From: Candidatus Jettenia sp. AMX2
GTDB taxonomy: Bacteria > Planctomycetota > Brocadiia > Brocadiales > Brocadiaceae
Reading direction: 5' to 3'
DNA length: 64,000 bases
NCBI GenBank assembly: GCA_030583665.1
Contig: CP129469.1
Coordinates: forward strand, 3,091,043 to 3,155,042
Under the pieces are notes generated by a model that saw nothing but the letters and a program-made list of their open reading frames with translations, searched no databases and was not told where the DNA came from. A program made the translations under genes and the position numbers. Shown here one piece after another: positions 5,799 through 62,906 of this stretch (its first letter is position 1; every line of letters starts with the position of its first letter).

Positions 5799-6260
5799 AT
5801 GGCCGGAACATTCACCCAAATATACATACAAGCAATATTTGCCGTAAACGGCAGGGCAAACCTGTTGCAAAAACCGTGGTGTGACGAGGTGTTCAAATAT
5901 ATGGCCGGCATTATCAAAAACAAGGGACAAAAACCTATAATCGTTAATGGCATTGCCAACCATGTACATATGTTCGTTGGGTTACAACCGGCTATGGCCT
6001 TGTCTGATCTGGTCAGAAATGTGAAAAACAATACAACGAATTTCATTAATGACCAGAAATGGATAAGAGGTAGATTTTCATGGCAGGAAGGATATGGCGC
6101 CTTCTCTTATGCCCATAGCCAGATAGAGACGGTTTATAACTATATTTTAAGACAGGAAGAACATCATACGAAGAAAACGTTTAAAGAAGAATATATTGAT
6201 TTTCTAAAAAAATTCCAGATATTGCATGAAGAACGATTCTTATTTGAATGGATTGATTAA
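5799..6260 (+). CDS. IS200-like Y1 (HUH) transposase associated with the CCCGAAGGG repeats
   Basis: This 153-residue protein matches single-domain Y1 transposases. The HUH metal motif appears in the segment ANHVHMFVG (around residue 50). The conserved WQEGYGAFSYAHSQ follows, and then a helix with YILRQEEHHTKKTFKEEY, which carries the candidate nucleophilic tyrosine. Y1 enzymes nick and rejoin single-stranded DNA at hairpins. The length is normal and the frame intact. CCCGAAGGG palindromes flank it on both sides (5271-5780 and 6263-6391), and another copy lies at 10298-10379. This suggests it is the enzyme that spreads or once spread these palindromes. No accessory TnpB gene is present. Whether it is a mobile IS200 or a domesticated RAYT cannot be settled from one locus. 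Confidence 0.88.
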   Translation: MAGTFTQIYIQAIFAVNGRANLLQKPWCDEVFKYMAGIIKNKGQKPIIVNGIANHVHMFVGLQPAMALSDLVRNVKNNTTNFINDQKWIRGRFSWQEGYGAFSYAHSQIETVYNYILRQEEHHTKKTFKEEYIDFLKKFQILHEERFLFEWID

Positions 6261-6262
6261 TT

Positions 6263-6391
6263 GATAATATTTCACCCCTTCGGGGTTTAAGATCCCTATT
6301 ATGGCTCTTGCTATAATCATGGCATCCCTACGGGATTGGGAAGCAAAAAAATAAATTGATGCTACAATCATTACATCTCTTTGGGATTAGG
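6263..6391. repeat. CCCGAAGGG palindromic repeats downstream of the Y1 transposase
   Basis: Three reverse-orientation units (near 6273, 6315 and 6368) share the CCCTTCGGGG or TCTTTGGGATTAG core. The segment around 6345-6391 is nearly the same as 5452-5500 upstream of the transposase. The gene is therefore bracketed by related repeats. Confidence 0.78.
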
Positions 6392-6410
6392 CTGAGAAGA
6401 AACCAAATTC

Positions 6411-6473
6411 TTGCAGGAATACCGTACTGCATTAATCAGCGAAGTGGTGACGGGGAAAATAAGGGTGATATAG
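6411..6473 (+). pseudogene. Duplicated 3' end of an hsdS gene
   Basis: These 63 bp align without gaps to the last 63 bp of hsdS (5206-5268) with about ten mismatches. They encode LQEYRTALISEVVTGKIRVI and a stop, against LQEYRTALISEVVTGKIKVV in the intact gene. Only three bases separate the stop from the ATG of the next gene. This suggests that the ancestral order was hsdS directly followed by the ATP-binding gene, and that the transposase block now lies between two hsdS ends. Confidence 0.82.
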
Positions 6474-6476
6474 AGC

Positions 6477-7930
6477 ATGACGGAAAAAGAACTTGAAACA
6501 CTTCTTAAAAATCTACAGGCATTACCCAAAGAATGTGAATGGGCAGAGTTTAAGGTAGACTACTGGAATCCGCAGGAAATAGGTGAATATCTGTCGGCAT
6601 TAGCTAACAGCGCATGTTATCATCATCAGAAATACGGTTATCTGGTTTTTGGCATTGAAGATGAAACCCACCTCCTGCTAGGCACAAAGTTTAAACCTTT
6701 GCACGAAAAGAAAGGCAATCAGGAACTTGAAAACTGGCTTGCCACACAACTTAATCCTCGCATTGATTTCAATATTTTTGAGTTTGATTATAATAACATG
6801 CACTTTGCCATTTTCAGGGTAGATGCTACCGCCAGCATGCCGGTGAGTTTTCGAGGCATACCTTATATTCGCATTGGGTCTTATAAAAAACCATTGGATG
6901 ACCATCCGGAACGAGAACGTAAAATATGGAACCGAACCAGCCAGGTTGTTTTTGAAAAAGAATTTGCTTTAGAAAAATTGAGCGAGGAAGATATTTTGAG
7001 ACTGATAGATTATCCTGGTTATTTTGATATGATGAAACTACTACTGCCTGATAATCGAAAAGGAATCATTGAACGCTTAATTCAGGACAGGATAATTGAA
7101 TTTGATGGTTATAACCTGAATATCACTAACCTTGGAGGGATTCTATTTGCTAAGAACATCGAGCAGTTTGAAAACATTAGCCGCAAAGCTGTAAGAGTAA
7201 TAGTTTATCAGGGCAATAACCGCATTAAAACCAAAAAGGAACAAACAGGGACAAGGGGCTATGCCATAGGATTTGAAGAAGTGAACAAATACATTACTGA
7301 CCAGTTGCCGACCAATGAAATAATAGAAAAAGCACTGAGAAAAGAAGTGTCTGTTTATTCTCCGCTTGCCATACGTGAATTGGTAGCTAATGCAATCATC
7401 CATCAGGATTTCAGTATTAAAGGGACTTCGCCAATGATAGAAATCTTTGATAACCGTATTGAGATAACTAATCCCGGTAAGCCCTTGATTGACCTTTGCG
7501 CTTTGTTGATCATAGTCCTGAAAGCCGAAATGAATTATTGGCTCGTTTTATGAGAAGATTGAATATTTGTGAAGAACGAGGTAGTGGTATTGATAAAGTG
7601 GTATTTGAATGTGAGTATTTCCAATTACCTGCGCCGGAATTTATTGTCGGCAATAATTTTACAAGAACTATTTTATATGCGCCAAAAACATTACGGCAAA
7701 TGGATAAGCAGGACAAGATAAGAGCGTGCTATTTGCACGCATGCCTTAAATATGTTTCAGGCGGATTAATGTCTAATCAGAGTTTAAGGGAAAGATTCGG
7801 GGTTAAAGAGCATAATTATTCAATAATTTCTAGGATAATTGCTGAAACAAAAGAGGCCGGATTAGTTAAAGATTATGATCCAAGTAATAAATCAAGAACT
7901 TATGCCAAATACCTTCCTTTTTGGGTGTAA
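6477..7930 (+). pseudogene. AlbA_2/Schlafen-domain ATP-binding protein of the RM locus, frameshifted
   Basis: The N-terminal part has the AlbA_2 (Schlafen-like) pattern: EWAEFKVDYWNPQEIGEYLSA near the start, then YGYLVFGIEDETH and PVSFRGIPYIRIGSYKKPL. A central divergent GHKL-type ATP-binding region follows with REL..NAIIHQDF and IEIFDNRIEITNPG. The frame ends early at 7553. A second frame from about 7496 carries the expected continuation (RNELLARFMRRLNICEERGSGIDKV) and a C-terminal winged-helix-like part. Restoring one C in the run at about 7493 would rejoin the two into roughly 484 residues. Genes of this family often sit between hsdS and hsdR; a regulatory or accessory defence role is assumed, not shown. 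As written, the ATP-binding fold is truncated. Confidence 0.8.
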
Positions 7931-8133
7931 AATCTTATGTGATGGTTATGTGATTGAGCGCCATGGTGAAATAGATAACATATTGATTTTCAATATCTTA
8001 TTATATAACGGTTATGTGATTGAAAAGATAGATAAAGGATTAGGAAGAACCAAAAAGTGTTCTAATAGGATAAGGAGCTTTATTAGAAAACCTATCAAAA
8101 ATATTTTTATAAGCCATGTAATAATAAATAGTT
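7931..8133. other. AT-rich spacer with a short direct repeat
   Basis: No gene is seen. GGTTATGTGATTGA occurs twice, at 7944-7957 and 8010-8023, 66 bp apart. Otherwise nothing recognisable lies between the ATP-binding gene and the hsdR fragment. Confidence 0.5.
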
Positions 8134-8400
8134 ATGAATTATAATAACATACATACAGAATCCGCATTTGAATCCGCAATTATCGAACACTTGACAACCA
8201 ACGGCTGGCATCTGGGCAAAGACTTGAATTTCTGTCGCGATCTGGCATTTGACAAAAAAACAGTCCTCTCTTTTATCCAGACGTCTCAGCCTAAAGAGTG
8301 GGCTAAACTTCGTTTGTATTACAACGATGATACCGAAAGCAAATTCATCCATCGATTGTTCAAGGAACCCATAGTGGTCTTTTGTTTAAAAGAGTTCTAA
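8134..8400 (+). pseudogene. Truncated 5' end of a divergent hsdR
   Basis: The first about 80 residues (MNYNNIHTESAFESAIIEHL, later DDTESKFIHRLFKE) align with the start of the intact HsdR at 10391 (MNKGIHTESIFETAIVEHLT, later EDTESKFIHRLFKE). Similarity ends abruptly near 8371, where the intact protein continues LDLRGMLDV. Beyond that the frame runs only to a stop at 8400. At the DNA level the two copies are clearly diverged (roughly two-thirds identical by eye). The fragment is therefore an older or foreign hsdR allele and not a fresh duplication. It lacks the nuclease and helicase motifs. Confidence 0.82.
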
Positions 8401-8532
8401 AAGAGTTTAAAGGATAAATAATACAAAATCAAACACTTACAGTTATTATAAAATTAAAGATTTTAAAAGAGTTTTGTTGAATTCATGTGGAATATTATTC
8501 GTAAGAATATACTATCAGAAAATAATGTTAAA
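8401..8532. other. Spacer between the hsdR fragment and the IS element
   Basis: AT-rich sequence with repeated AAAAGAGTT words (near 8389, 8399 and 8465) and no gene. It ends in TTAAA at 8528-8532, the left copy of the IS target duplication. Confidence 0.5.
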
Positions 8533-10250
8533 CCTAAATCCTGCAAACAAGGCTTGGCCTTGTTGCAGGATTAGGCCAGAAATGGTAGAATCTCCAAGGG
8601 GTTAAAGGATTTCAAACAACTAAAAGGAGGTTCACCATTTCTATGAAGACTATAGCACAAAACGAGGAAAGAAAACAACCGAAAATCAAGACGGAGATGA
8701 GTGGGAAGGGATTAAAGGTACATGCAGGGCTATTACCGGTACTCACCTTCATGGGGAAGTTGTTATTCAGGCAGCGAATACAAGAAGCAATACGTAAGGA
8801 GCGTGGGGCAAATGCCCAGTAGATGTCGTGCAAATAATAGTAATCGGGTTGATAGCCGGAGCAACCTCGATGGTGCAGATAGTGAATGTATGGGCGGACG
8901 AAGTGCTCCGGGAAATGGCTGGAAGGGATGAGATTCCCGTGGATACAACGCTTGGACGTATTATAAAGCTGGTAAGCCAGGGGGATATTGTGGAAATGAC
9001 GGGGATAATCCATAGATTCAGGGGACAGGTGTGGAAACGGGCGGTGCGTTCAGGGCATAAACTGAGAAGTGCGCTCAGCGATATGTGGATAGACGTTGAT
9101 TCAACGGTGGATGGGGTATATGGGAATCAGCAAGGAGCGGAAGTGGGATATAACCCCAAAAAGAGGGGACAGAAGTCGTATCATCCCGTGATAGCATTTG
9201 TGGCAGAGACGAAAGAGATATTGCATAGCTGGTTTCGTTGTGGAAGCGCATACACGAGCAATGGAGTAGTCGAATTCATGAAGGAGTGTGTGGCGTATAT
9301 GAAGAAACGGGTAAGGGTAATCTTTAGGGGCGACAGAGGTTTTTTCTCTGGAGAGTTGCTGGATTACCTGGAGTCAGTATCAGCGGGATACCTTATCAAG
9401 GTGAAGTTGAAGAATCTGATCGGGTTGCTCGAAGGCCAGAAATGGGAGACAGTGGAAGGGACTGCAGGATGGGAGCAAGCCGATTTTGTGTATCAATGCG
9501 CCACATGGAATCGTGCAAGACGATTTGTGGCAGTAAGGCAATTGATCAAAACAGAGAGGGGATTGTTTGATATCCCTGTGTATGAGTATTTCTGTTACGT
9601 TACGACAGAACGGTTAAGTCCGATAGAAGCGCATCGTTCGTATGGAAAGAGGGCTACCTGTGAGACGTGGATAGAAGAGTGTAAGAGTCAGATGAATGCG
9701 GGGCATTTACGTACGTCAGAGTTTTTAGCAAATGCGGCATTATTTCAATGTGCCGTGTTAGCTTATAATCTTCTGAAGTGGATGGCGCTTCTGACGGGAG
9801 GGGCTGTTCAACACTGGGAAGTGAAGACGATGAGGCTATGGCTAATACGGATTGCGGGAAAATTAACAAAAGGAAGCAGACAATTGACATTAAAATTACC
9901 CGAGAAATTTCTCCACCAGAAAGAATGGCAGGCGTGGGAAGGTATGTCGCTGGGTGTAGAGTTCGGGTAGAAAGTGATTGTTGTCCCCGCTTTACTACCT
10001 GAAGGGACAAGCTTTGATTCCAGATATTTTGGGTGCTGAGAATACAGCAAAGGGAGACGGTATGTCTATGTCCCGGTTTTTGTCGCTCAGAATGGTTTAG
10101 TCTGAGCTATTTTCCAGTTCTTTTTGACCAAAATGGCGCTGGCTAACTCAGAATACCGCTAAAAATTGAAGTTTATTATTGATTTTTGTCTAGCAAGGGC
10201 ATTATAGAAGGTCGATTTTCGCTACGCGAAAATCATTTGCAGAATTTAGG
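8533..10250 (+). mobile_element. IS1380-family insertion sequence, complete ends
   Basis: Terminal inverted repeats CCTAAATCCTGCAAA (8533-8547) and TTTGCAGAATTTAGG (10236-10250) match at 14 of 15 positions. The direct repeat TTAAA flanks both ends (8528-8532 and 10251-10255), as expected for an IS1380-type target duplication around TTAA. The left terminus lies in a larger palindrome (8533-8575, arms around AAGGCTTGGCCTT). The right end has a perfect hairpin at 10214-10234 (GATTTTCGC, TAC, GCGAAAATC). Both may block transcription entering the element. The single transposase gene is frameshifted, so the copy is probably immobile unless complemented. Confidence 0.88.
8643..9970 (+). pseudogene. 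IS1380-family DDE transposase, frameshifted near codon 60
   Basis: The main frame (GTG at 8828 to 9970, 380 residues) contains the family's signature: DSTVDGVYGNQQGAEVGYNP followed by KKRGQKSYHP, then RGDRGFF with the second acidic residue, and a C-terminal part with ATCETWIEECKSQ. The probable first 59 residues (ATG at 8643, MKTIAQNEERKQP to RGANAQ) lie in another frame ending in TAG at 8820-8822. One extra base at about 8820 (CAG GTA GAT instead of CAG TAG AT) would give one protein of about 442 residues, the usual length. A purine-rich GGAGG lies just upstream of 8643. A programmed frameshift is possible but there is no slippery run at the junction. Confidence 0.85.
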
Positions 10251-10297
10251 TTAAAAATTAAAACAAGGGTAAATTTCCGAGGAAATGAGATATAAAC

Positions 10298-10379
10298 ACA
10301 GGTTTTCTATGCCACCCCTTCGGGGTTCAAAATCCTTCTTATGATTTTTGCTATAATCATGACATCCCTTCGGGATTCA
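10298..10379. repeat. Distant copy of the CCCGAAGGG repeat pair, upstream of hsdR
   Basis: About 80 bp closely match 5344-5425 (CTATGCCACCCCTTCGGGG, then TTTGCTATAATCAT and ATCCCTTCGGGATT). The copy abuts the hsdR translation start. It shows that a two-unit block of the array has moved or been duplicated as one piece. Confidence 0.8.
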
Positions 10380-10390
10380 TGGAGAAACTC

Positions 10391-13387
10391 ATGAATAAAG
10401 GAATACATACAGAATCTATTTTTGAAACGGCCATTGTTGAGCATCTCACTGCGAATGGTTGGATCGAAGGCAATGCCTTTAATTTTAGCAAAGATCTGTC
10501 CCTCGATAAAAAAGCTGTATTGTCTTTCGTTCAGGAATCCCAGCCCGTAGAATGGGAAAAGCTGAAATCCTACTACAGAGAAGATACCGAAAGCAAATTT
10601 ATCCACCGGTTGTTCAAAGAACTGGATTTACGGGGCATGCTGGATGTTGTCCGTCACGGTATTACGGACAGCGGTGTCAAATTTAAACTCGCATATTTCA
10701 AACCTGACAGTAAGCTTAATCCCGATACGCTGAAACAATATAACTATAACAGGCTTTATGTCACCCGGCAGGTTTGTTTCTCAACAAAAAATAATAAAAG
10801 CATCGACCTTCTGCTTTCGCTCAACGGGTTGCCTATTGCAACTATTGAGTTAAAGAATCATTTTACCGGACAACGGGTCGATGAGGCTATGGAACAATAC
10901 CGTACCAGCCGTGATCCGAAGGAGTTGTTATTCCAGTTTAAAAAACGGGCATTAGTACATTTTACGGTTGATCCGGATGAGGTCTATTTTACCACGAAGC
11001 TTGAAAGCAGTGGCACACGCTTTTTCCCATTCAATAAGGGGTTCAATAACGGCGGAGGCAATCCGCCAGTGAAAGATTACACCACCTACCGTGCCGCCTA
11101 TTTCTGGGAGGATATTCTCGGGGTAGATAGCTGGCTTGAAATTATTGGACGTTTTATGCATCTGCAAAAGGATGAATACCTGGTTGACGGGAAAAGGTAT
11201 TACAAAGAGACTCTGCTTTTCCCCCGCTATCATCAGCTTGATGTGGTACGAAAATTAACAGAACATGCGAAGGTGCAGGGATCTGGGAAGAGATATCTCA
11301 TACAACATTCAGCAGGAAGCGGAAAAAGCAACTCCATTGCATGGCTGGCCTACCGGTTGTCTTCACTCTATAATGAAGCGGACAGGAAGGTTTTTGATTC
11401 AATTCTTGTAATAACCGACAGGAACGTGCTTGACCAGCAGTTGCAAAATACCATTTACCAGTTTGAGCATAAAACAGGCGTGGTACAGCGCATTGATGCA
11501 GATTCCAGGCAATTGGCAGATGCAATTCATTCGGGAGTCGGTATTATTATAACAACCTTGCAGAAATTCCCTTTTGCCCTGAAATATTTGGCAGAAATTT
11601 CTAAACGCAACTATGCTGTTATCATTGATGAAGCACACAGCAGTCAGGGTGGTGAAGCAAGCCGTAAAATGACAGAGGCATTGGTTGGTAAAAATGTTAG
11701 CCTGGAAGAATCTGAAAAAGTTGAAGGTGAGATTGAAAAAAACGTTGAGGATGCAGATGACTATATAAGGGAAACCATCCTGAAAAGAGGGCCACAGAAA
11801 AATATTAGTCTGTTTGCTTTTACCGCAACCCCAAAGGCAAAAACATTGGAAGTGTTTGGCGTCAAAGATACCGAAGGAAAGCCAAAACCATTTCACCTAT
11901 ACTCTATGCGTCAGGCCATTGAAGAAGGTTTTATTCTGGATGTGCTCAGGAATTATACAACCTATGAGACCTATTACCAATTCTGCAAAATCATAGAAGA
12001 AGACCCTGAATTGAATAAGAGAAAGGCTGCAAAAGCCATAGGTAGATTTGCTTCATTACATCCTACGAATCTTGCACAGAAAACAGAGGTCATGGTAGAG
12101 CATTTCAGACAGATAACAATGAAGAAGATTGGCGGGAAGGCAAAGGCTATGGTTGTAACAGCCTCCCGCAAGCATGCCTTGCGGTATTATCTGGAGTTTA
12201 AGGATTATATCAAGGAAAAAGGATATACCGGCATTCGGCCCCTGGTTGCTTTTTCAGGCACAGTCATCGACGATCTGTATCCTGAAGGTGTAACAGAAAC
12301 GCAGCTAAACAAGTTTGGTGAAAAGGAATTGCCCGAAAAGTTTTCAACCCCTGAATATCAGGTCTTGCTTGTTGCAGATAAATATCAATATGGTTTCGAC
12401 CAACCTCTTTTACACACTATGTACGTAGATAAAAAGTTATCCGGTGTGAGAGCAGTTCAGACTTTATCGAGGTTAAACAGAACGTGTCCCGGGAAAGAAG
12501 ACACCTTTGTTCTTGATTTCGCAAATGACCGGCAGACGATTATCGATTCGTTTCAACCCTATTATGAACTGACCACTATGGCAGAAACCACCGATCCGAA
12601 TCACTTATATGATTTAAAGGGAATTACCGATAAAGCACAGGTATATTATCAATCGGAAGTCAATGCATTTTCTAAGGTATTCTATAAACCCGGTAACGTC
12701 TCGGTAAAAGATCAGGCAAAGTTATATGCATATATTGACCCTGCAGTTGATCGCTTTAAAGAACTGGAAGAAGAGCCGCAGGAAGAATTTAAGAAGTCGA
12801 TGACCTCATTTGTACGTCTTTATTCCTTTTTATCTCAAATCATGCCGTTTCAGGATATAGAACTGGAAAAACTCTATTCGTATGGCCGTTTTTTATTAAC
12901 CAAATTACCGAAAATAGATTATACAGAAAGGCTAAAACTTGATAACGAAGTTGCCCTTGAATATTACAGGCTTCAAAAAATAGCCGAGGGCGATTTGGTA
13001 CTACAGGTTCAGGGTGAGCATAGTCTTGATCCAACCACGGAGGCAGGAATAAGCAAACCAAAAGATGAAAAAGACAGGCTTTCAAATATCATCAGGCTGT
13101 TGAATGATAAATTCGGCACTGACTTTACCGAAGCAGACCGATTGTATTTTGAGCAAATAGAACAGGCGCTTTATGAGAATGAAGAATTGAAGGTAAGGGC
13201 TAAAAACAACCCCATCGAAAATTTCAAATATGCGTTTGAAGAGGTTTTCATTCAAACCCTGATCGACAGAATGGATGCCAACCAGGATATCTTTGAAAAG
13301 ATCATGGAGAATTCAGAATTTAAGCAGGATGTGAAAGATTGGTTGGCGAAGAGGATTTATCAGCGATTTAAAGAGAGTGAAGAATAG
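10391..13387 (+). CDS. hsdR: Type I restriction endonuclease/translocase subunit HsdR
   Basis: HsdR translocates DNA and cuts it away from the recognition site in complex with HsdM and HsdS. The N-terminal nuclease domain is marked by PIATIELKNHFTGQ (the E-x-K of the PD-(D/E)xK fold). The helicase motor has the Walker A segment QHSAGSGKSNSIAWLA, the DEAH box IIDEAHSSQGG, FAFTATP and the later motif QTLSRLNRT. A long helical C-terminus completes about 999 residues, the normal size. The ATG at 10391 is preferred over 10379 because GGAG lies 6-9 bases upstream and because the aligned paralogous fragment starts there. The frame is intact. It is separated from hsdM and hsdS by the insertions. Confidence 0.93.
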   Translation: MNKGIHTESIFETAIVEHLTANGWIEGNAFNFSKDLSLDKKAVLSFVQESQPVEWEKLKSYYREDTESKFIHRLFKELDLRGMLDVVRHGITDSGVKFKLAYFKPDSKLNPDTLKQYNYNRLYVTRQVCFSTKNNKSIDLLLSLNGLPIATIELKNHFTGQRVDEAMEQYRTSRDPKELLFQFKKRALVHFTVDPDEVYFTTKLESSGTRFFPFNKGFNNGGGNPPVKDYTTYRAAYFWEDILGVDSWLEIIGRFMHLQKDEYLVDGKRYYKETLLFPRYHQLDVVRKLTEHAKVQGSGKRYLIQHSAGSGKSNSIAWLAYRLSSLYNEADRKVFDSILVITDRNVLDQQLQNTIYQFEHKTGVVQRIDADSRQLADAIHSGVGIIITTLQKFPFALKYLAEISKRNYAVIIDEAHSSQGGEASRKMTEALVGKNVSLEESEKVEGEIEKNVEDADDYIRETILKRGPQKNISLFAFTATPKAKTLEVFGVKDTEGKPKPFHLYSMRQAIEEGFILDVLRNYTTYETYYQFCKIIEEDPELNKRKAAKAIGRFASLHPTNLAQKTEVMVEHFRQITMKKIGGKAKAMVVTASRKHALRYYLEFKDYIKEKGYTGIRPLVAFSGTVIDDLYPEGVTETQLNKFGEKELPEKFSTPEYQVLLVADKYQYGFDQPLLHTMYVDKKLSGVRAVQTLSRLNRTCPGKEDTFVLDFANDRQTIIDSFQPYYELTTMAETTDPNHLYDLKGITDKAQVYYQSEVNAFSKVFYKPGNVSVKDQAKLYAYIDPAVDRFKELEEEPQEEFKKSMTSFVRLYSFLSQIMPFQDIELEKLYSYGRFLLTKLPKIDYTERLKLDNEVALEYYRLQKIAEGDLVLQVQGEHSLDPTTEAGISKPKDEKDRLSNIIRLLNDKFGTDFTEADRLYFEQIEQALYENEELKVRAKNNPIENFKYAFEEVFIQTLIDRMDANQDIFEKIMENSEFKQDVKDWLAKRIYQRFKESEE

Positions 13388-53073: not shown

Positions 53074-54864
53074 ATGAATTTAACAACTTCTGTTAAGGGA
53101 ATACCATTAGCACTCGTTTTCATCATACTTTTTACAGGATTTCTCTTTTTATTTAATATAGGCAAAAGGGATTTATGGGCACCTGACGAGCCACGATATG
53201 CACAAGTATCGAAAGAAATGAGGGATACCGGCAGGTACATTGTTCCCCACCTGAATAGCGCACCGTACCCAGACAAACCTCCGCTCCTCTTCTGGCTTAT
53301 CAATATATCTTCCCTGCCGTTTGGAAAGATTACAGCTCTTTCAGCCCGTCTCCCGTCAGCTTTCGCTGGTATTGGCTGCTGTATTGCTGTGTTTTATCTG
53401 GCTAAGGGCCTATATCATAATACAAGGATAGCCTTACTATCTTCTCTTATCCTCGCCACCAGCTCAAAGTTTTTATGGATGACCCACCGTGTAGCCTTTG
53501 ATGTCCTCCTTACCTTTTTTGTGACAATGGCAATATTTTGGTTTTACAAAGGATATACGATACAGTATAATGCGAACCTTCCCCACGGAGGGGATTTTGA
53601 TAAAAAAGGGATAAAAAAATATACAGGATTCTATTACACCTTTTTTTATATTTTTATGGCTTTGGGAGTTCTTACAAAAGGACCTATAGGTTTTATTCTT
53701 CCATTCCATACTGTATTAATCTTCCTTATATTAATGGGCAACCCCGGCATGTTAAAGGATACCAAGCCATGGATCGGAGGCATATTATTTATCATTATCG
53801 TATCTGCATGGGTTTTCTTAGCAAGTGTGTATGGCGGGAAAGAATATACAAACCAAATCCTCTTCAACCAAAACCTCGGTCGATTTGCTAACTCGTTTGC
53901 ACACAAGAAACCATTTTATTATTACTTTATCAATTTCCCTCTCCATTTCCTTCCGTGGAGTATTTTTATTCCAGGTTTTATAATATATTTGTTTTCTAGG
54001 AAAGGAAGAGAAAAAATATCCGGCATTCCCTCACTAAGAAATTTCAAAGCCGTTATCCTTCGCCGTTTCACATCTCCGGCCAATGGTGCATATCGTATCA
54101 AAAGCTTTTGTTGCTTAGAACAAGATAGAAAATTCCCTCTGTTGCCAGTCATCTGGTTTGCTGTTATCTTCATCTTTTTTTCCATTGCGTCAGGGAAAAG
54201 GGACATCTATATTCTCCCACTTTATCCTGCTGCTTCAATGCTTATAGGATGGTTCCTCAATGAATTTATTGACCAATCCCGGGAGAAATATTTCAGAAAA
54301 ACGGGTTATTATCCCTGCTACTTTCTTTCAGTAATATCATTGGCATTGTGTGTGCTTCTGCCAATAATTGCTTATAAAACATTCCCTCAATATATTGGCA
54401 CAACAATTCCATTTATAATAATCCTTTTTATTGCTGGTATTATCATGTTGTGGTCATTACGGCGTACGTATATAACCTTTTTTCTTTTTACTGTCATTTT
54501 TGTTATATTCATCACTTTTACTACCGGCACCTTAAGAGCGATTCCAATACTCAATCAGTATAAATCTGCTAAAGATATTTGCTATAAGGCAAAAACGGTA
54601 ATGAAGCCCAGGGAAAAACTGGCTATCTTTAATTTCTTCAGAGACCCTTATCTATTTTATACTGACCGAAATTATATTGAGGTAATATACGGATTAGATA
54701 ACCTGGAAACATTTCTGAAGTCTCCGGAAAGGGTATTTCTTTTTATCAGCGAAAATGATTTTAAAAAGGCTTCGGAGATTCCTGATATACCTATGTTTGT
54801 GTTGGAAAAGGATTCTGTAGGACACCGTGATATGCTTTTTGTCTCAAACAGGGATATTGAGTAA
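53074..54864 (+). CDS. ArnT-like glycosyltransferase family 39 membrane protein
   Basis: The 596-residue integral membrane protein has about twelve predicted segments. The first loop carries the GT39/ArnT signature DLWAPDEPRYAQVSKEMRDT, with acidic catalytic residues, followed by YPDKPPLLFWLI. These enzymes transfer a sugar from a polyprenyl-phosphate carrier to lipid A, proteins or other glycans on the periplasmic side. The acceptor cannot be told; aminoarabinose biosynthesis genes are not in the window. A TATAAT at 52923-52928 lies 145 bp upstream without a clear -35 box. A repeat-rich protein gene follows after 74 bp. Confidence 0.85.
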   Translation: MNLTTSVKGIPLALVFIILFTGFLFLFNIGKRDLWAPDEPRYAQVSKEMRDTGRYIVPHLNSAPYPDKPPLLFWLINISSLPFGKITALSARLPSAFAGIGCCIAVFYLAKGLYHNTRIALLSSLILATSSKFLWMTHRVAFDVLLTFFVTMAIFWFYKGYTIQYNANLPHGGDFDKKGIKKYTGFYYTFFYIFMALGVLTKGPIGFILPFHTVLIFLILMGNPGMLKDTKPWIGGILFIIIVSAWVFLASVYGGKEYTNQILFNQNLGRFANSFAHKKPFYYYFINFPLHFLPWSIFIPGFIIYLFSRKGREKISGIPSLRNFKAVILRRFTSPANGAYRIKSFCCLEQDRKFPLLPVIWFAVIFIFFSIASGKRDIYILPLYPAASMLIGWFLNEFIDQSREKYFRKTGYYPCYFLSVISLALCVLLPIIAYKTFPQYIGTTIPFIIILFIAGIIMLWSLRRTYITFFLFTVIFVIFITFTTGTLRAIPILNQYKSAKDICYKAKTVMKPREKLAIFNFFRDPYLFYTDRNYIEVIYGLDNLETFLKSPERVFLFISENDFKKASEIPDIPMFVLEKDSVGHRDMLFVSNRDIE

Positions 54865-54938: not shown

Positions 54939-56996
54939 ATGAATATACGGTTCCCGATAGTACTATTTTTATACTTCCTCGGCCTGTCATTATTTCCTCC
55001 TCTTCAAATGTTCGCTCAATCTGCAGAAGGTTTTCCAAATACAGTGTTAAATACCAGCAATTCTTATCATGCTGCCCGTACCGGTTTTACAGAAGTATTT
55101 GATCAATTTGGTGATAATGCGGAGCGTCTCTACCGGGAATACGATATTTTTGCTCTTAAGTTTTTAGAAGAGTTCGGGATAGAAGGTCTTACCCTCCTCG
55201 AAAAATATGGCAAAAAAATGACAACCCTCTACCCCTTCCTGGATTATCGTGATATTTTTCTTCTCTATAATAATCCGGGAAATAACCTTAACAAGCTTGA
55301 GATATTCTCACCAAAAGCCCTTGCTGATTTTTACAAAACCTTTGGAAAAGAAGGAGTACAACACCTTGCCGGTAACCCTGAAAATTTCTTTTTTATCACA
55401 GAAAATACAAACCGGGGCATCAAACTGCTTAACCTTGCCAGAGAAAAAGGAGAAATCATATTCCCCATAGCACGAAAACACGGCATTGAGTTTGCCGAAC
55501 TTTATGATAATGATGTATTAAACATCATTATCAAATTTCAGGATGAAGGCCTTTTGGCCATAAAAGAATATGGTGAAAAGGCAAAGACCTTGTTTCGCCT
55601 GTTTATAAACGACGATACTTTTTACCAGGTAATGAAAACATATGGACACAAACAAACCATCCCGATTATTTATTTATTTTATGATAATAAAGATTTTAAT
55701 AGTCAGATCTACCACTATCTGACAACAACAAATACGTATAAATGGTTTTCAGGCTGGTGGTACGGTGTCGATACAAATAGAGAAAATACTCAGGATGATA
55801 TCACGGTAAGGCAAGAAAATGCCCGACGGGCTATTAACCTTATCCTTGAACTGGGAAATGATTTTATCGATAGGTTTGAGATACTTGACATCCAAAACGT
55901 CAGGGAAGAGGCCATAACAATAATCACCAATAAGTTAAGGAATTTTTTTGTGTCTGAAATTATAAGGATTAACCGGAAAAGGATTCAGCAGGAAGATATT
56001 ACTTTCCAGGATAAGTTGTTTGCCGGATTAGACATTCTTGGACTCATACCTCTGGGAAGCGGCATCTCAAAAATGACAAAGCCGGCAACGAAAGTAATGA
56101 GAAACACCTTACCTGCAAAAGGCTTAAAAGGATTAATCTGTCAGACAGACAATCTTTTTAAAATGCATGGGGATGATGTTGTCCGATTCGTAGCAAAGCA
56201 TGGGGATGAAGGTATGAAAATTCTAAAGGAAACCGATGGTAAGATCCTTACGATCGTGCAACACTACGGAGATGATGCTGTTCGGTACGTTACAAAATAT
56301 GGCACAAACACCATACCAGTAATAGAAAAATATGGTACGGAGGTCATAACTCTGGCACGCCGCTATGGTGATGAGGTAATTAAATATACCATGCTTTACG
56401 GTGATGATGGCCTGAGGGTTATTCAGAAACACGGAAAGGATATTGTATTATTAAGCACCGTCTACGGAGACGATGTTATGAAACTCTCGATCCTTTACGG
56501 CAAAGAAATCTTACCTTACGTATCCCGGTATGGAGCAAACGGCGTCAAGGTTATGGGAAAATACGGAAACGATGTTATTCCTCTTGCGAGAAAATACGGA
56601 GATGACGTTATTAAGTATGTTGGCATGTACGGCACAGATGGACTGGCACTTGCCAGAAAAGGCAAAGCAGGTCTGTTGGTAATGCGATTTATGCCGCCAA
56701 AGGTATTTGTGAAATGCATAAAATTTATCAAGTATGGCATGCTGGTATTCATATTCTTCTCCTTTATCACCCATCCTCTTGCATTTCTTTCCGGACTGAT
56801 AAAGGCCCTTTCATGGCTGTTTGGTATTCATCCAGTAATTATCGCAACTATTTTAGGTTTTATCATTACATTTCTTCTTTTTAAATTTTTGAGAAAATTC
56901 AGTAATATTTTCAAGCCGCTTCTTCTCTTTCTTTGTATCACAAAGGGATTTATTACCGGCCAGCAGAAATGCCATGACACGAAAACGAATAAATAA
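54939..56996 (+). CDS. Predicted exported protein built from 11-residue helical repeats, C-terminal membrane helices
   Basis: I do not recognise the family. The 685 residues start with a probable signal or anchor (FPIVLFLYFLGLSLFPPLQM). They contain many copies of an 11-residue unit with the pattern [YH]G-D/T-D/E-V-I-x-Y/L-A/V-x-K. Fifteen consecutive units without gaps occupy residues 410-574 (56166-56660), for example YGDDVIKYVGM, YGNDVIPLARK, YGTEVITLARR and HGDDVVRFVAK. Weaker units occur at about 40-85 (FGDNAERLYRE, FGIEGLTLLEK) and at about 170-210. Two strongly hydrophobic stretches follow near 600-655. An 11-residue period fits continuous or stacked alpha helices (three turns per unit). 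It lies after the glycosyltransferase gene and may share its transcript. No enzyme motif is seen. Confidence 0.8.
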   Translation: MNIRFPIVLFLYFLGLSLFPPLQMFAQSAEGFPNTVLNTSNSYHAARTGFTEVFDQFGDNAERLYREYDIFALKFLEEFGIEGLTLLEKYGKKMTTLYPFLDYRDIFLLYNNPGNNLNKLEIFSPKALADFYKTFGKEGVQHLAGNPENFFFITENTNRGIKLLNLAREKGEIIFPIARKHGIEFAELYDNDVLNIIIKFQDEGLLAIKEYGEKAKTLFRLFINDDTFYQVMKTYGHKQTIPIIYLFYDNKDFNSQIYHYLTTTNTYKWFSGWWYGVDTNRENTQDDITVRQENARRAINLILELGNDFIDRFEILDIQNVREEAITIITNKLRNFFVSEIIRINRKRIQQEDITFQDKLFAGLDILGLIPLGSGISKMTKPATKVMRNTLPAKGLKGLICQTDNLFKMHGDDVVRFVAKHGDEGMKILKETDGKILTIVQHYGDDAVRYVTKYGTNTIPVIEKYGTEVITLARRYGDEVIKYTMLYGDDGLRVIQKHGKDIVLLSTVYGDDVMKLSILYGKEILPYVSRYGANGVKVMGKYGNDVIPLARKYGDDVIKYVGMYGTDGLALARKGKAGLLVMRFMPPKVFVKCIKFIKYGMLVFIFFSFITHPLAFLSGLIKALSWLFGIHPVIIATILGFIITFLLFKFLRKFSNIFKPLLLFLCITKGFITGQQKCHDTKTNK

Positions 56997-57472: not shown

Positions 57473-58867
57473 ATGGCCAAAAATAAAATAAAAAATAAAA
57501 AACAGAACATACGGCAAAAATGGAAGCTTGGTATCGAAGAGTTTGCCACAAAACATTTCGATGTTTCCTCTGATAAGGAGCTTATCATCCGGGAAGGGAA
57601 CTATCAGTATAACATATATGATCTTGTACAACGCTTCGGCACTCCACTTGAGGTAGTATTTCCCTTTGTTATTGAGGAACGTTTAAACGAACTTATCGCT
57701 ATCTTTAAATATTATATCCGGCTCAACAAATATCGCGGCAAATTTTACTTTCACTACCCGATGAAGGTAAACCAAAACAAGGAATTTGTTTTGCCTATCA
57801 TCTCTGAGGGCGCGCATATTGAGGTTGGTTCGGTAAATGAGCTATGGCTGGTTAAGCGAATGTGGGAACAAGAACAGTTTTCACGCCATATAAAAGTTAT
57901 TTGCAACGGTCCAAAAACCAACAAATACCTTGGCCTCATTAATGAATTAAAACAAAAAGGACTTGATATCGTTCCTATTATTGAAGACCAGTATGAGCTT
58001 GATTCTTTAAAAACATATAAAGGAGAACTTGGCATCAGGATAGACCCGGAGGTCAAGGTACAATCTCACTGGGATAAACGCATCGACCGCTTCGGATTTA
58101 CCGGCAAACAGCTTTTAGAATTTGGACGCATCCGTAATCTGAAAATCCTGCATTACCATATTGGTTCACAGATCATTAAACTAGAAGATATGGTTTCTCC
58201 GTTAAAAAAGGTAATGGATATCTACATTAAGCTGAAAACAATAAACCCATCACTGGATACTATTAATCTTGGAGGTGGTTTTGCTGTTCCCTACATAAAA
58301 CGGAAAATATATTCAGCTGACAGTATTGTTAAACGTATTCTGAAGACCTTAAAGGAAATAGCCGATAAACATGGGATTCCCCATCCGAATATCATTGTCG
58401 AATGGGGAAGGTATCTCGTAGCACCGGCACAGATAACTATCTACCGGGTCATCTCGCAAAAACCCATATTAAAATCTGCTGCATCCTGGTGGTATGTCAT
58501 TGACGGCAGTTTTATCAATGATCTTCTTGATACCTGGGCAATCCATCAAAAATGGCACGTCGTACCCGTAAATAACCTTGGCGCTGAACGTTTATCCAGG
58601 GTATGGCTTGCAGGGTCCTCATGCGACTCGGACGATAAATATACAGGAAGTGGCAACTATATCTCATTACCAAGGCTGGAAGATCTGGAAGAGAATGGCA
58701 AGTCACTCTACATTAGCTTCTTTGATACCGGTGCTTATCAGGATGCATTAGCCTCACATCACTGCCTGCTCTCATCACCAGCTAAGATCATAGCCCAGAA
58801 TGGTGTCATTACCGTTGCCAGGAAGCGGGAAACAGCCGAAGAGATCGGGAAACGGTTTGGCTGGTAA
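57473..58867 (+). CDS. PLP-dependent arginine-decarboxylase-like enzyme (SpeA-like, short form)
   Basis: A fold-III PLP decarboxylase (alanine-racemase barrel). The cofactor lysine is Lys98 in FYFHYPMKVNQN, matching the YPIKVNQ of biosynthetic arginine decarboxylases. Further family signatures are HIEVGSVNELWLV, VICNGPKTNKYL, ILHYHIGSQI, TINLGGGFAVPY, EWGRYLVAPAQIT and the C-x-D-type active-site segment GSSCDSDDKY near 383. Its 464 residues are much fewer than the about 630 of classical SpeA, lacking the inserted helical and C-terminal domains. It could make agmatine for polyamine synthesis or act on another basic amino acid. No other polyamine genes are nearby. The etf genes follow after 60 bp on the same strand. 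Confidence 0.82.
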   Translation: MAKNKIKNKKQNIRQKWKLGIEEFATKHFDVSSDKELIIREGNYQYNIYDLVQRFGTPLEVVFPFVIEERLNELIAIFKYYIRLNKYRGKFYFHYPMKVNQNKEFVLPIISEGAHIEVGSVNELWLVKRMWEQEQFSRHIKVICNGPKTNKYLGLINELKQKGLDIVPIIEDQYELDSLKTYKGELGIRIDPEVKVQSHWDKRIDRFGFTGKQLLEFGRIRNLKILHYHIGSQIIKLEDMVSPLKKVMDIYIKLKTINPSLDTINLGGGFAVPYIKRKIYSADSIVKRILKTLKEIADKHGIPHPNIIVEWGRYLVAPAQITIYRVISQKPILKSAASWWYVIDGSFINDLLDTWAIHQKWHVVPVNNLGAERLSRVWLAGSSCDSDDKYTGSGNYISLPRLEDLEENGKSLYISFFDTGAYQDALASHHCLLSSPAKIIAQNGVITVARKRETAEEIGKRFGW

Positions 58868-58927: not shown

Positions 58928-61018
58928 ATGAGCAACTATATAGTTCTCGTCAAACAGGTACCAGATGTAACTCAAATTACCGGCAATGCATTCGACCCGG
59001 AAACCGGCACTCTCAAACGCGGCGCTTTACCGAGTGTTATCAATAAACTTGACACAGATGCATTAGCATTCGCTCATAAGATGAGGCAAGCATCACCCGG
59101 ATGTATTGTCAGTCTTACCATGGGTCCCCCAACGGCCAAAGACGTCCTGATTTATTCGCTGAGCAGATGTGCCGACTCTGCGATACTTCTTACCGACAGA
59201 TCACTGGGGGGGGCTGACACCCCTGCAACTGCCAATCCATTGGCCTTTGCCATAAGACGAATCGTTAAGGACATATTCAACGGCAATACAGATTACGTGG
59301 TGGTTGCCGGTATGCAATCGGTTGATGGAGATACCGCTCAGGTTCCCCCACAAATAGCCGAGGAATTGCAAATACCTTGTATTGCGTATGCTACAGATGT
59401 TGAATTTGCTGATAATATCTTCCGGATTAAGAAAATCGTTGCTGGTGGTAATCAGTGGGTTAGTTCCAATACCCTTCCTTGCGTAATAACAGTTGCTAAT
59501 TATGAATATCCATCGTTTGCATCGTTTCAGAGATCACGATGGGCCAGAGAATATACGGTTATTCATTGGTCTGCCGAAGATATAAAACCGACATTGTTTG
59601 GTTCCGAGGGTTCCAGGACGCGGGTAATAAAGGTCTTCCCCCCACCCAAAAGCTCCAGGAAAAATAAACAGGTTGCCCATATAAATGAATTCGTTTCAGA
59701 ATTACTCATAAATTATAAAAAAGGTGAGGTTCGCAACATTTTCGAAACGAAGGAGGCAGATTACCTTATTCCCTCAAAAAGGGATGGCGGGATATTTAAC
59801 CGCAATTATGAAGTGACCGATAAGGAAGTCAGGCTATTTAACAAGATTGCACAATCTCTTGCCAAATTGGGAATAACCGAAGTAAATCAGCTTAGCGAAT
59901 CCATTGCAGATAAGATTCAGGAACTTCTCGATGAGAAAGTACCGAAACGGATGATTTTGGAGATTTTTGAAGGATACAAGATAACGCAACCGAGTTACAG
60001 CGGGGATGTCTGGGTGGTTGCCGAACATGACGGTAAAAAAGTTACTGATGTCACTGCAGAACTTCTTGGGAAGGCCAGCGATCTTGCAAAAGTACTGGAG
60101 GTAAGAACGGGGGCAGTAATCGCCGGCCATGAATGCAAACATATGTCAGATGAGCTTGCTGCTGCAGGCGCTGATGATATTTATCTCATCGAAGATACAT
60201 TATTGAAGGATTTCAGACCGTGGCCATACCGGAAAGTCATCGTTGAGGTAATCAAAGCATACGAACCACAGATTGTCTTGTTTGGCGCCACACCCCAGGG
60301 GAGGGTTCTGGCACCCATGGTAGCATACCGGCTTGACTGTGGTTTAACAGCCGATTGTACCAGCCTGAATATCAGGGACAACACCCGGCGGGGAGTTATC
60401 GCATTGCTCGCTCAGACCCGTCCGGCACTCGGGGGCAATATCATGGCAACCATTTGTACCATAAATTCAAGGATACAGATGGCAACTGCCAGACCGGGTG
60501 TTATGAAAAAAATCAGGCCCGATGCTTCCAGGAAGGGAAACATTATAAAGCATAGCACCGTTCTTTCTGAAGAGGATATAGATATTACTATTATCAACAC
60601 AGAGCTGGGAGGTGGGATATCAAAGCTGGTAACTGCAGAGGTAATTGTAGCGGGGGGCAAGGGGCTGAGAAACAGGGATAATTTTAATAAGCTAGCCAGC
60701 GATCTGTCCACTGCGCTGCAAGAAAAGCTCAATTGCACCGTCGAGATTGGAGCATCCAGGGCAGCCGTGGAACAAGGATTCATCGACCGCGTCTATCAGG
60801 TTGGTCAAACAGGAACATCCGTTAGTCCCAGGATGTATATCGCCCTTGGTATTTCAGGCGCCATACAGCATCTTATAGGCATTGAAAATGCCGGAATCAT
60901 TGTAGCAGTTAACTCCGATCCGCAGGCCCCCATATTCAAGCATTCGGATTACTACATCGTTGGAACAGCGGAGGAGATTATACCACAAATTATTGAAGCC
61001 CTGAAAACAGCAAAGTAA
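58928..61018 (+). CDS. Electron transfer flavoprotein, EtfB and EtfA fused in one chain
   Basis: The 696-residue fusion first shows the beta subunit (MSNYIVLVKQVPDVTQITGN, DTDALAFAHKMRQ, VVVAGMQSVDGDTAQVPPQI; residues 1-250). A linker of about 100 residues with helical content follows. The alpha subunit begins near residue 355 (YSGDVWVVAEHDGKKVTDVT) and contains VLFGATPQGRVLAPMVAYRL, TARPGVMKKIRPD, VIVAGGKGLRN and the FAD segment YIALGISGAIQHLIGIENAG with VAVNSDPQAPIFKHSDYYIV. ETF passes electrons from dehydrogenases to the membrane via ETF:quinone oxidoreductase, which is encoded next. Normally the subunits are separate genes; a single chain enforces 1:1 stoichiometry. An intact frame spans the whole. 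Confidence 0.93.
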   Translation: MSNYIVLVKQVPDVTQITGNAFDPETGTLKRGALPSVINKLDTDALAFAHKMRQASPGCIVSLTMGPPTAKDVLIYSLSRCADSAILLTDRSLGGADTPATANPLAFAIRRIVKDIFNGNTDYVVVAGMQSVDGDTAQVPPQIAEELQIPCIAYATDVEFADNIFRIKKIVAGGNQWVSSNTLPCVITVANYEYPSFASFQRSRWAREYTVIHWSAEDIKPTLFGSEGSRTRVIKVFPPPKSSRKNKQVAHINEFVSELLINYKKGEVRNIFETKEADYLIPSKRDGGIFNRNYEVTDKEVRLFNKIAQSLAKLGITEVNQLSESIADKIQELLDEKVPKRMILEIFEGYKITQPSYSGDVWVVAEHDGKKVTDVTAELLGKASDLAKVLEVRTGAVIAGHECKHMSDELAAAGADDIYLIEDTLLKDFRPWPYRKVIVEVIKAYEPQIVLFGATPQGRVLAPMVAYRLDCGLTADCTSLNIRDNTRRGVIALLAQTRPALGGNIMATICTINSRIQMATARPGVMKKIRPDASRKGNIIKHSTVLSEEDIDITIINTELGGGISKLVTAEVIVAGGKGLRNRDNFNKLASDLSTALQEKLNCTVEIGASRAAVEQGFIDRVYQVGQTGTSVSPRMYIALGISGAIQHLIGIENAGIIVAVNSDPQAPIFKHSDYYIVGTAEEIIPQIIEALKTAK

Positions 61019-61211: not shown

Positions 61212-62906
61212 ATGCGAACAAAAGAAAAAGAATATAATCACGTTCAGGTCTTAATTGTTGGTGCGGGTCCAGGAGGACTTGCTGCTGCAATTGCCGCTAA
61301 AAATGCGGATAAGGATGCCGATATCGTGGTACTGGAAAAGGGGGAGGCCATCGGTAATCATACTATATCCGGAGCAGTTATTGAAATTACATCATTGAAA
61401 CGCATGCTTGATGAAGCTATGCCAGACTGGCTTACTCTGGAAGGAGCAGAACACATCCTGGAAAGGGAAGTAATAAATGATGATGTGTGTTTCCTCCTCG
61501 GTAAAAAATATTCCTTCGGTGTCTCACCAATAATCAAGCTTTGTAAGAAACTGAGATTGCCACCCGGCGACATGGATAACCATGGCAATTATATTGTTCC
61601 CATAAGCAAGTTAACAAAATTTCTGGGTAACGTAGCAGTTTCACTGGGAGTAAGTATCTATCCGGGTTTTGGCGTAAAGGAGATTGTATACGATACGGAC
61701 AAAAAAAAGGTTTACGGGATCAGGCTTGTTGATCAGGGACTTGATAAGGAAGGACATCCGCAACCAAATTACCTTAAGGGAGAAACAATTACTGCTGATG
61801 TTATCATCCTTGCCGAAGGGTCAGACGGTCTTGTTACTGAGGATTTGGTTGCAAAGGTTGGACTGAAGCGTGAGATTCATCAGGTATTCTCAGTTGGTGT
61901 AAAAGAAGTCCTTCGGGTCAGCAAGGAGCAGTACGGATTATTCGGCAATAACCGTGTAATTCATACTTTGGGTTATCCTCTGTGGTTTCCGGTATTTGGC
62001 CCTGATATCTTTGGAGGAGGATTTGCTTACAGCTATGGTGATAATCAAATTGCTGTTGGCATTCTTACCGGGGCAGACTGGAAATATTACAACTTTAATC
62101 CACAAAAAGCCCTTATGGACCTGAAATGCCATCCTTTTCTCTCACAGTTTATTGAAGGTGGTGAAGTAATCGAGACGGGTGCAAAAACGATTTCAGAAGG
62201 AGGGTATTATGCAATACCCCGGTATAAACAGTCTGATAGTAATGGTAAAACAACACACAGTGTCGGTTACGAAAATGTAATAATAATTGGTGATAGTGCT
62301 GGTTTCGTAAATTTGCATAAGATCAAGGGAATCCATAATGCCATTGAATCCGGATCGCTTGCGGGTAAGGCGTCAATCCAATGCCTGAAAGAACCCGGGA
62401 AGGCTGCCGAAGTCTATACCAGCATGCTAGAACAGAATTCAGTACTGGATGAGATGTGGCCGGCAAAAAATTTCCGCGCACTAATTGCGAAATTTGGTAC
62501 GGCAGCAGGGCTTCTTCTTGCAATCATTGGCAGGTATTTGCCAAAAATTACTCTTAAAAAAGATTTTGAGGCCATGACTACCGATAAGTTTAAATATGAT
62601 ACTCCGGGAAAATCTGATAAAGCAACCTTTGCAGCATTGGCAGGAACAAGGCACAGGGAAGATCAGCCATCACACCTCCGTATTTCAGATCAGCACTATT
62701 GCATCAATGAGTGCGATCCTCTTTTTGGCCGGGCTTGTATAACCTTTTGCCCGGCGGGTGTCTATGAGCAGGTTGGAGATAATACCCTTCCGGCAAACCC
62801 TTCAAATTGTATTCACTGCAAAACCTGTCAAAGAAAATGCCCGTTTGATAACATTCGATGGACGGTACCGGAAGGTGGCGGAGGCCCCAGATATAAACTT
62901 GTTTAA
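61212..62906 (+). CDS. Electron transfer flavoprotein:quinone oxidoreductase (FixC plus FixX in one chain)
   Basis: It takes electrons from ETF to the quinone pool. The 564 residues start with an FAD-binding fold (VQVLIVGAGPGGLAAAIAAK) and contain the family blocks GAVIEITSLKRML, AEGSDGLVTEDLVAKVGLKR and VIIIGDSAGFVNLHKIKGIH. The C-terminal FixX-type [4Fe-4S] domain has SNCIHCKTCQRKCPFDNIRW and PEGGGGPRYKLV. The middle hydrophobic patch (AGLLLAIIGRYLPKI) would contact the membrane. It begins 193 bp after the fused ETF gene on the same strand. The size matches single-chain ETF-QO rather than separate FixC and FixX. The gene converges with the formate-dehydrogenase-type gene. Confidence 0.93.
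   Translation: MRTKEKEYNHVQVLIVGAGPGGLAAAIAAKNADKDADIVVLEKGEAIGNHTISGAVIEITSLKRMLDEAMPDWLTLEGAEHILEREVINDDVCFLLGKKYSFGVSPIIKLCKKLRLPPGDMDNHGNYIVPISKLTKFLGNVAVSLGVSIYPGFGVKEIVYDTDKKKVYGIRLVDQGLDKEGHPQPNYLKGETITADVIILAEGSDGLVTEDLVAKVGLKREIHQVFSVGVKEVLRVSKEQYGLFGNNRVIHTLGYPLWFPVFGPDIFGGGFAYSYGDNQIAVGILTGADWKYYNFNPQKALMDLKCHPFLSQFIEGGEVIETGAKTISEGGYYAIPRYKQSDSNGKTTHSVGYENVIIIGDSAGFVNLHKIKGIHNAIESGSLAGKASIQCLKEPGKAAEVYTSMLEQNSVLDEMWPAKNFRALIAKFGTAAGLLLAIIGRYLPKITLKKDFEAMTTDKFKYDTPGKSDKATFAALAGTRHREDQPSHLRISDQHYCINECDPLFGRACITFCPAGVYEQVGDNTLPANPSNCIHCKTCQRKCPFDNIRWTVPEGGGGPRYKLV

What the first reader, a model, noticed from the sequence alone, without database searches (positions are those of the whole stretch)
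54939..56996. Protein made of perfect 11-residue repeats with a signal peptide and C-terminal membrane helices
Fifteen gapless hendecads in residues 410-574 and further weaker ones near the N-terminus show strict periodicity with a Tyr/His-Gly start. Eleven-residue periods suit helices that pack with a slight right-handed twist. Glycine at a fixed position might instead break each unit into a short helix and turn. I know of no characterised family with this unit. It may be a surface or internal-membrane scaffold.
Basis: partly seen in the sequence, partly recalled or inferred. Interest (0 to 1): 0.65.

Follow-up and report, generated by a model that had tools for sequence, protein, structure and literature searches.

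The report
Planctomycete 11-residue-repeat membrane-anchored scaffold protein
This is a real, conserved anammox-bacterial protein built from fifteen back-to-back 11-residue helical repeats. It looks exported and membrane-anchored, and it is the enlarged relative of an undescribed planctomycete protein family that usually comes with a fixed membrane partner gene and is often carried on mobile DNA.

Summary
ORF 54939-56996 encodes 685 aa; residues 410-574 are fifteen gapless 11-mers (14 of 15 with Gly at position 2), with 11/22/33-residue periods far above shuffles and weaker 11-mers in residues 45-240. Full-length orthologues (59-66% identity) occur only in the anammox family (23 of 59 relatives), with the same 15 units in register. 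Pfam, NCBIfam, PADLOC and PDB sequences have no match. AlphaFold2 gives a confident all-helical array (pLDDT 89, pTM 0.75) with no close solved fold, of short helices broken near the Gly, some fused. New here: the unit recurs in an undescribed family of other Planctomycetota (70 of 298 genomes of one class): signal peptide, GDD 11-mers, C-terminal membrane helix. That gene is preceded by the same partner membrane gene in 27 of 27 testable loci, and in 14 of 23 extended loci lies beside a TraG/VirD4-type coupling-protein gene, usually with ParB. The anammox genomes tested lack the partner and the coupling protein. Best reading: an exported, membrane-anchored helical-repeat scaffold, the expanded stand-alone form of a planctomycete envelope protein. 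Function is inferred. Not a known family, but a known kind of architecture.

The parts
54939..56996 (+). CDS of the 685-aa repeat protein (ATG to TAA), single copy in the genome
54939..55022 (+). predicted signal peptide, residues 1-28 (hydrophobic 7-25, AQS|AE)
   Evidence: hydropathy; conserved hydrophobic N-terminus in alignment; not tested with a signal-peptide predictor
55071..55604 (+). N-terminal helical array with degenerate 11-residue units, residues 45-222
   Evidence: lag-11 z 4.4 over 45-265; profile match to the main array; pLDDT about 75-94
55728..56144 (+). middle region, residues 264-402: no detected relatives outside the family, mostly low AlphaFold confidence, includes conserved FAGLDILGLxPxGSGISK segment
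56166..56660 (+). fifteen gapless 11-residue units, residues 410-574, consensus YGDDVIKxVxK
   Evidence: helical model pLDDT 89, pTM 0.75
56697..56771 (+). predicted membrane helix 1, residues 587-611, preceded by a K/R-rich amphipathic stretch
56832..56897 (+). predicted membrane helix 2, residues 632-653; between the helices THPLAFLSGLIK, resembling FLADPEPFIDG of the planctomycete family
53074..54864 (+). neighbour, PMT/ArnT-type membrane glycosyltransferase, 74 bases upstream; related genes also lie upstream in about 11 other anammox loci, not in most Brocadia; probably not an obligate part

Best explanation
The protein is an exported, C-terminally membrane-anchored scaffold. A signal peptide takes it across a membrane, two arrays of 11-residue helical units (residues 45-222 and 410-574) stack into a rigid superhelical surface, and a C-terminal pair of hydrophobic helices holds it in the membrane, so that a fixed-length surface is presented to a partner. 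It is the enlarged, stand-alone anammox form of a planctomycete family whose ordinary member (about 280 aa) is made together with one membrane partner protein. Shown by computation: the repeats, their fixed number, the helical model, the family relationship through the repeat unit, and the partner gene and mobile-element linkage in the other planctomycetes. Inferred: export, topology, membrane anchoring, scaffold role. Not known: the binding partner and which anammox membrane.
For: Array and period. Copy number frozen at 15 and units conserved by position (74% identity between species at the same unit, 34% between units of one protein), as expected of a shaped surface rather than a length-variable array. 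All-helical confident model of the array alone, pLDDT 89, pTM 0.75; full model. Hydrophobic N-terminus and C-terminal helices across the family. Relationship to the planctomycete family: profile-profile E 7e-13, against 0.1 for the reversed and 0.16 for the best of 20 column-shuffled profiles; the reverse search finds this gene and no other in each anammox genome that has it (E 4e-14 to 7e-6). Same architecture and same 11-residue period (lag-11 z 4.4) in that family. Partner gene directly upstream in 27 of 30 loci, the other 3 cut by contig ends.
Against: No experiment, and no localisation or expression data were found. Most of the profile signal is the repeat unit itself: shuffling 22-column blocks of the profile still gives E 1.8e-11 to 3e-6, and the C-terminal motif alone reaches only E 0.017, so convergent repeats are not fully excluded. 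The partner is not found in anammox genomes, so the family's best functional clue does not carry over. Lys/Arg flanks both sides of the C-terminal hairpin, which fits cytoplasmic ends as well as an exported array. The gene is missing from about a third of the anammox-family genomes, including all three of genus g10, tentatively Kuenenia, so it is not essential to the anammox cell plan.
Confidence: 0.55

Rival explanations
1. Domesticated part of a DNA-transfer envelope complex. In other planctomycetes the repeat protein and its partner serve a coupling-protein-based DNA-transfer element (channel, mating-pair or exclusion component), and the anammox gene is a descendant kept after the element was lost.
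For: ParB, TraG/VirD4-type coupling protein, partner and repeat genes form a block in many loci: a coupling protein within the window in 14 of 23 loci, ParB in 13, integrase in at least 5. They lie together on the 32-kb Singulisphaera plasmid pSINAC03 with a MobF relaxase. By density, about 30 strong coupling-protein matches in about 130 Mb, 18-kb windows should hold about 0.004 each; 8 of 20 did. The 12 host genomes searched have no VirB4 ATPase by two models, so a standard mating channel was not detected.
Against: About 9 of 23 loci have only the pair, and many coupling-protein loci lack the pair. The five anammox genomes tested have no coupling protein, and anammox genomes have no partner. 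Nothing shows transfer.
Confidence: 0.15
2. Continuous right-handed hendecad coiled-coil rod: the 11-residue period reflects an uninterrupted 11/3 helix that oligomerises.
For: Hydrophobic moment peaks at 98.2 degrees, the 11/3 helix angle. DSSP shows helices of 31 and 42 residues over several units.
Against: Any helical 11-mer repeat gives that peak. Nearly invariant Gly after Tyr every 11 residues, with Asp-Asp next, looks like helix caps. The model breaks the array into about ten helices, several of them 8-10 residues long.
Confidence: 0.1
3. Membrane-active protein: the amphipathic short helices insert into or permeabilise membranes, as in aureocin-like leaderless bacteriocins.
For: 13 of 20 planctomycete members give weak Pfam matches to aureocin-like PF11758, best E 7e-5; where located they lie at a YGDD or YGDxAMDFIWRNKG unit.
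Against: The scores shown are below the Pfam cutoff (20.1 and 14.5 bits against 25); the anammox protein itself has none. Array helices are charged at positions 3, 4, 7 and 11.
Confidence: 0.07
4. Cell-surface or S-layer-type structural protein whose repeats are a convergent, low-information helical array unrelated to the other planctomycete proteins.
For: Exported architecture; most of the profile score rests on the repeat unit.
Against: Single copy with C-terminal membrane helices and fixed repeat number; similarity far above reversed and shuffled controls, within one phylum, with matching architecture.
Confidence: 0.1

Closest known systems
Uncharacterised Planctomycetia proteins such as WP_044148304.1 of Singulisphaera acidiphila plasmid pSINAC03 (annotated hypothetical protein)
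   Same: Signal peptide, 11-residue GDD units, C-terminal hydrophobic helix; mutual profile matches
   Different: About 280 aa, a handful of degenerate units, paired with the partner gene wherever testable, often on mobile elements; the anammox form has two arrays, 15 regular units, an extra middle region and no partner
TAL-effector and mTERF alpha-solenoids (best structural neighbours)
   Same: Helical superhelix; the 33-residue higher order here is close to the TAL repeat length
   Different: Z only 4.8-5.2 at 10-17 A rmsd, about 10% identity, no sequence-family match; this protein looks exported and membrane-anchored
Hendecad coiled coils (right-handed)
   Same: 11-residue period with a helical hydrophobic moment
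   Different: Nearly invariant Gly and helix-capping Asp in each unit; predicted broken helices
Aureocin-like leaderless bacteriocins, PF11758
   Same: YG..A...W..KG-like stretch in the planctomycete members
   Different: Below the Pfam cutoff where shown; large anchored protein; no match in the anammox member

Membership tests
Planctomycetia GDD-hendecad protein family (defined here, alignment A4) | 11-residue GDD helical units | tested here: met
   profile-profile E 7e-13 against 0.1-0.16 in controls; reciprocal genome search
Planctomycetia GDD-hendecad protein family (defined here, alignment A4) | C-terminal FIWxNKG...FLxxPEPFIDG membrane segment | tested here: inconclusive
   22-residue in-order match only, E 0.017
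Planctomycetia GDD-hendecad protein family (defined here, alignment A4) | partner membrane gene directly upstream | tested here: not met
   no partner match in 39 relatives; upstream gene is a glycosyltransferase. So the anammox protein is filed as a divergent relative, not a standard member
TAL effector / mTERF alpha-solenoids | same fold | tested here: inconclusive
   Foldseek E 0.014 at best for the whole model and 1.7 for the array; Z 5.2 and 4.8
TAL effector / mTERF alpha-solenoids | sequence-family match | tested here: not met
   no Pfam family at E <= 1
Right-handed hendecad coiled coil | continuous helix across units | tested here: inconclusive
   AlphaFold breaks many units but fuses two to four in places
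Aureocin-like bacteriocin PF11758 | Pfam gathering score | tested here: not met
   no match for the window protein; weak matches in relatives, 20.1 and 14.5 bits shown against a cutoff of 25
Type IV secretion / conjugation component | linkage to coupling protein and ParB | tested here: not met
   met for many Planctomycetia relatives but not for the anammox gene: none in window or anammox loci, no PF02534 in five anammox genomes
Type IV secretion / conjugation component | role in DNA transfer | not testable with these tools
   needs mating experiments
Known anti-phage defence systems (PADLOC) | profile match | tested here: not met
   no match for the window protein, relatives or partner

The most novel reading that the evidence does not exclude
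The repeat protein and its partner form an unrecognised, VirB4-independent envelope apparatus through which planctomycete plasmids and integrative elements move DNA using a TraG/VirD4-type coupling protein, and anammox bacteria have kept and enlarged the repeat protein as a fixed membrane scaffold.
Probability: 0.1. Interest if true: 0.85.

Novelty: new variant of a known kind. Interest (0 to 1): 0.5.

Why it matters
It adds an undescribed, apparently phylum-restricted helical repeat family with a very short unit (11 residues) and a confident predicted structure without a close solved match. It ties an anammox orphan to a two-gene membrane module of other planctomycetes. That module's linkage to coupling protein, ParB, relaxase and integrase, in genomes without a detectable VirB4, raises a testable question about how planctomycetes exchange DNA across their unusual envelope.

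Tried and rejected
Pfam, NCBIfam, PHROGs, PADLOC and PDB sequence searches gave nothing convincing; the ankyrin-design matches (E 0.11) are chance. Phage records: none. Lactiplantibacillus plasmid hits (GH70 family genes, E about 1e-3) are taken as repeat-driven chance. The match in L061 is a GDD-rich ORF that looks like a calcium-binding beta-roll and was dropped. The idea that the middle region is a fused copy of the partner was tested and not supported (profile probability 0.4%). Operon function from anammox neighbours failed: the glycosyltransferase recurs in some lineages, otherwise neighbours vary. Foldseek against PDB and viral models gave no E below 0.001; a missing match is not proof of a new fold. 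Paper searches found nothing on this repeat or on the planctomycete module. Presence outside Planctomycetota was not tested beyond plasmid, phage and viral collections.

Full report
Observation. The ORF is exactly where stated: 54939-56996, + strand, 685 aa, one copy in a complete 3.46-Mb genome. Residues 410-574 are fifteen 11-residue units without a gap; Gly at position 2 in 14 of 15, Tyr or His before it in 14 of 15; unit 432-442 is the exception. In the family consensus the block has lag-11, lag-22 and lag-33 z-scores of 13.3, 12.5 and 17.3; the N-terminal part (45-265) has lag-11 z = 4.4, and its profile matches the main array (E 1.7e-8).

Where it occurs. Among 59 relatives, 23 have it, all in the same family, with 59-66% identity over full length. 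Named records in the indexed genomes are Ca. Brocadia, Ca. Jettenia, Ca. Loosdrechtia and unnamed planctomycetes; the window's genus is, by matching contig and coordinates, that of Ca. Loosdrechtia aerotolerans. Several genomes of the family lack it, including three of genus g10, which by size I take to be Kuenenia (inference). All 20 aligned proteins keep the 15 units, with one single-residue gap in one species; units are conserved by position (74% between species, 34% between units; lag-3 and lag-7 units most alike). So this is a frozen array, not an expanding or contracting one.

Structure. AlphaFold2 on 17 sequences gives an all-helical protein: both arrays confident, middle region 264-402 mostly below 50. 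The array alone (398-600) reaches pLDDT 89, pTM 0.75. DSSP lists about ten helices, several of 8-10 residues (one unit each), others running through two to four units. Hydrophobic moment peaks at 98.2 degrees, as any helical 11-mer would. Foldseek finds no PDB or viral model with E below 0.001; the best neighbours are TAL effectors and designed helical repeats (Z 4.8-5.2, rmsd 10-17 A), which the tool's own notes call uninformative.

A wider family. A profile of the anammox proteins found two short proteins in other planctomycete families (a third hit was spurious). Searching with one of them found relatives in 70 of 298 genomes of its class, many 38-56% identical over nearly full length. They share a signal peptide, degenerate GDD 11-mers (lag-11 z 4.4) and a C-terminal hydrophobic segment with a basic tail. 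The link to the anammox protein is E 7e-13 profile to profile; reversed and column-shuffled controls give 0.1 and 0.16. The reverse profile search finds this gene and nothing else in each anammox genome that has it. The caveat is that block shuffles keep most of the score, so it rests on the repeat unit; the C-terminal motif adds only E 0.017.

Partner and mobile context. In 27 of 30 short-family loci the gene is directly preceded, often with overlapping stop and start, by one partner gene encoding an N-terminal membrane anchor, a helical domain and a Gly-rich hydrophobic segment; the other three loci are cut by contig ends. In 23 extended loci (two of them from one genome, one the Singulisphaera plasmid, one a contig from the viral collection) both genes are present in all. 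A TraG/VirD4-type coupling protein lies in 14 windows, ParB in 13, an integrase in at least 5. Eight of 20 windows contain one of about 30 strong PF02534 matches present in about 130 Mb of these genomes, where about 0.08 would be expected (my arithmetic). pSINAC03 carries ParB, partner, repeat protein, a small ORF, coupling protein, integrase and a MobF relaxase in 32 kb. VirB4 was not found in 12 of these genomes with two Pfam models that do ring in control genomes. PLSDB nevertheless types pSINAC03 as MPF_T. Conversely, many coupling-protein loci lack the pair.

Back to the anammox gene. It has no partner and the five anammox genomes tested have no PF02534 coupling protein; its middle region does not resemble the partner. 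Its only recurrent neighbour is a PMT/ArnT-type glycosyltransferase in some lineages. I therefore read it as a stand-alone, enlarged relative acting as a membrane-attached extracytoplasmic scaffold. Export and anchoring rest on hydropathy; the Lys/Arg-rich stretch before the first C-terminal helix is an awkward fit to the positive-inside rule and leaves topology open.

Verdict. Real and conserved, an undescribed repeat family, a known kind of architecture (helical repeat scaffold) with an unusually short unit. The most interesting lead is not the anammox protein itself but the paired, mobile-element-linked form in other planctomycetes.

Noticed in passing
L130, L131, L135, L136, L138-L142, L146-L149, L129 (Planctomycetia loci): Recurrent block of ParB, TraG/VirD4-type coupling protein, partner membrane gene and repeat gene, sometimes with a tyrosine integrase; no VirB4 found in 12 of the host genomes.
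   Followed up: partly
L150 (NC_019895.1) 5824-11074: Singulisphaera acidiphila plasmid pSINAC03 carries ParB, partner, repeat protein, a small ORF and coupling protein, plus a MobF relaxase; it would be a ready experimental system.
   Followed up: partly
L107 871-2055: Variant with the family's C-terminal FLWKHKKG...PGDFLASIG segment but without GDD 11-mers in front, suggesting that the C-terminal part is the constant piece and the array varies.
   Followed up: no
planctomycete short-family proteins, e.g. L060 1168-2019: 13 of 20 give weak Pfam matches to aureocin-like bacteriocins (PF11758), below cutoff where scores were shown.
   Followed up: partly
many f101 genomes (e.g. G432:C1:183941-184315): A second, much weaker group of matches (about 24-31% identity, mostly to the C-terminal half) in frames of about 350 aa; possibly a further subfamily.
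   Followed up: no
window 58928-61018: One ORF holds two electron-transfer-flavoprotein domains (beta-alpha fusion), followed by an ETF-quinone oxidoreductase at 61212-62906.
   Followed up: no
window 57473-58867: PLP decarboxylase scoring between arginine decarboxylase and diaminopimelate decarboxylase models, well below both cutoffs; substrate uncertain.
   Followed up: no
window 5511-5593: The only tandem DNA repeat of the window: 39-base unit, 2.1 copies.
   Followed up: no
L043 8398-10514: In one water-column metagenome genome the anammox orthologue is split into two overlapping frames (537 + 168 aa), a sequencing error or a decaying copy.
   Followed up: no
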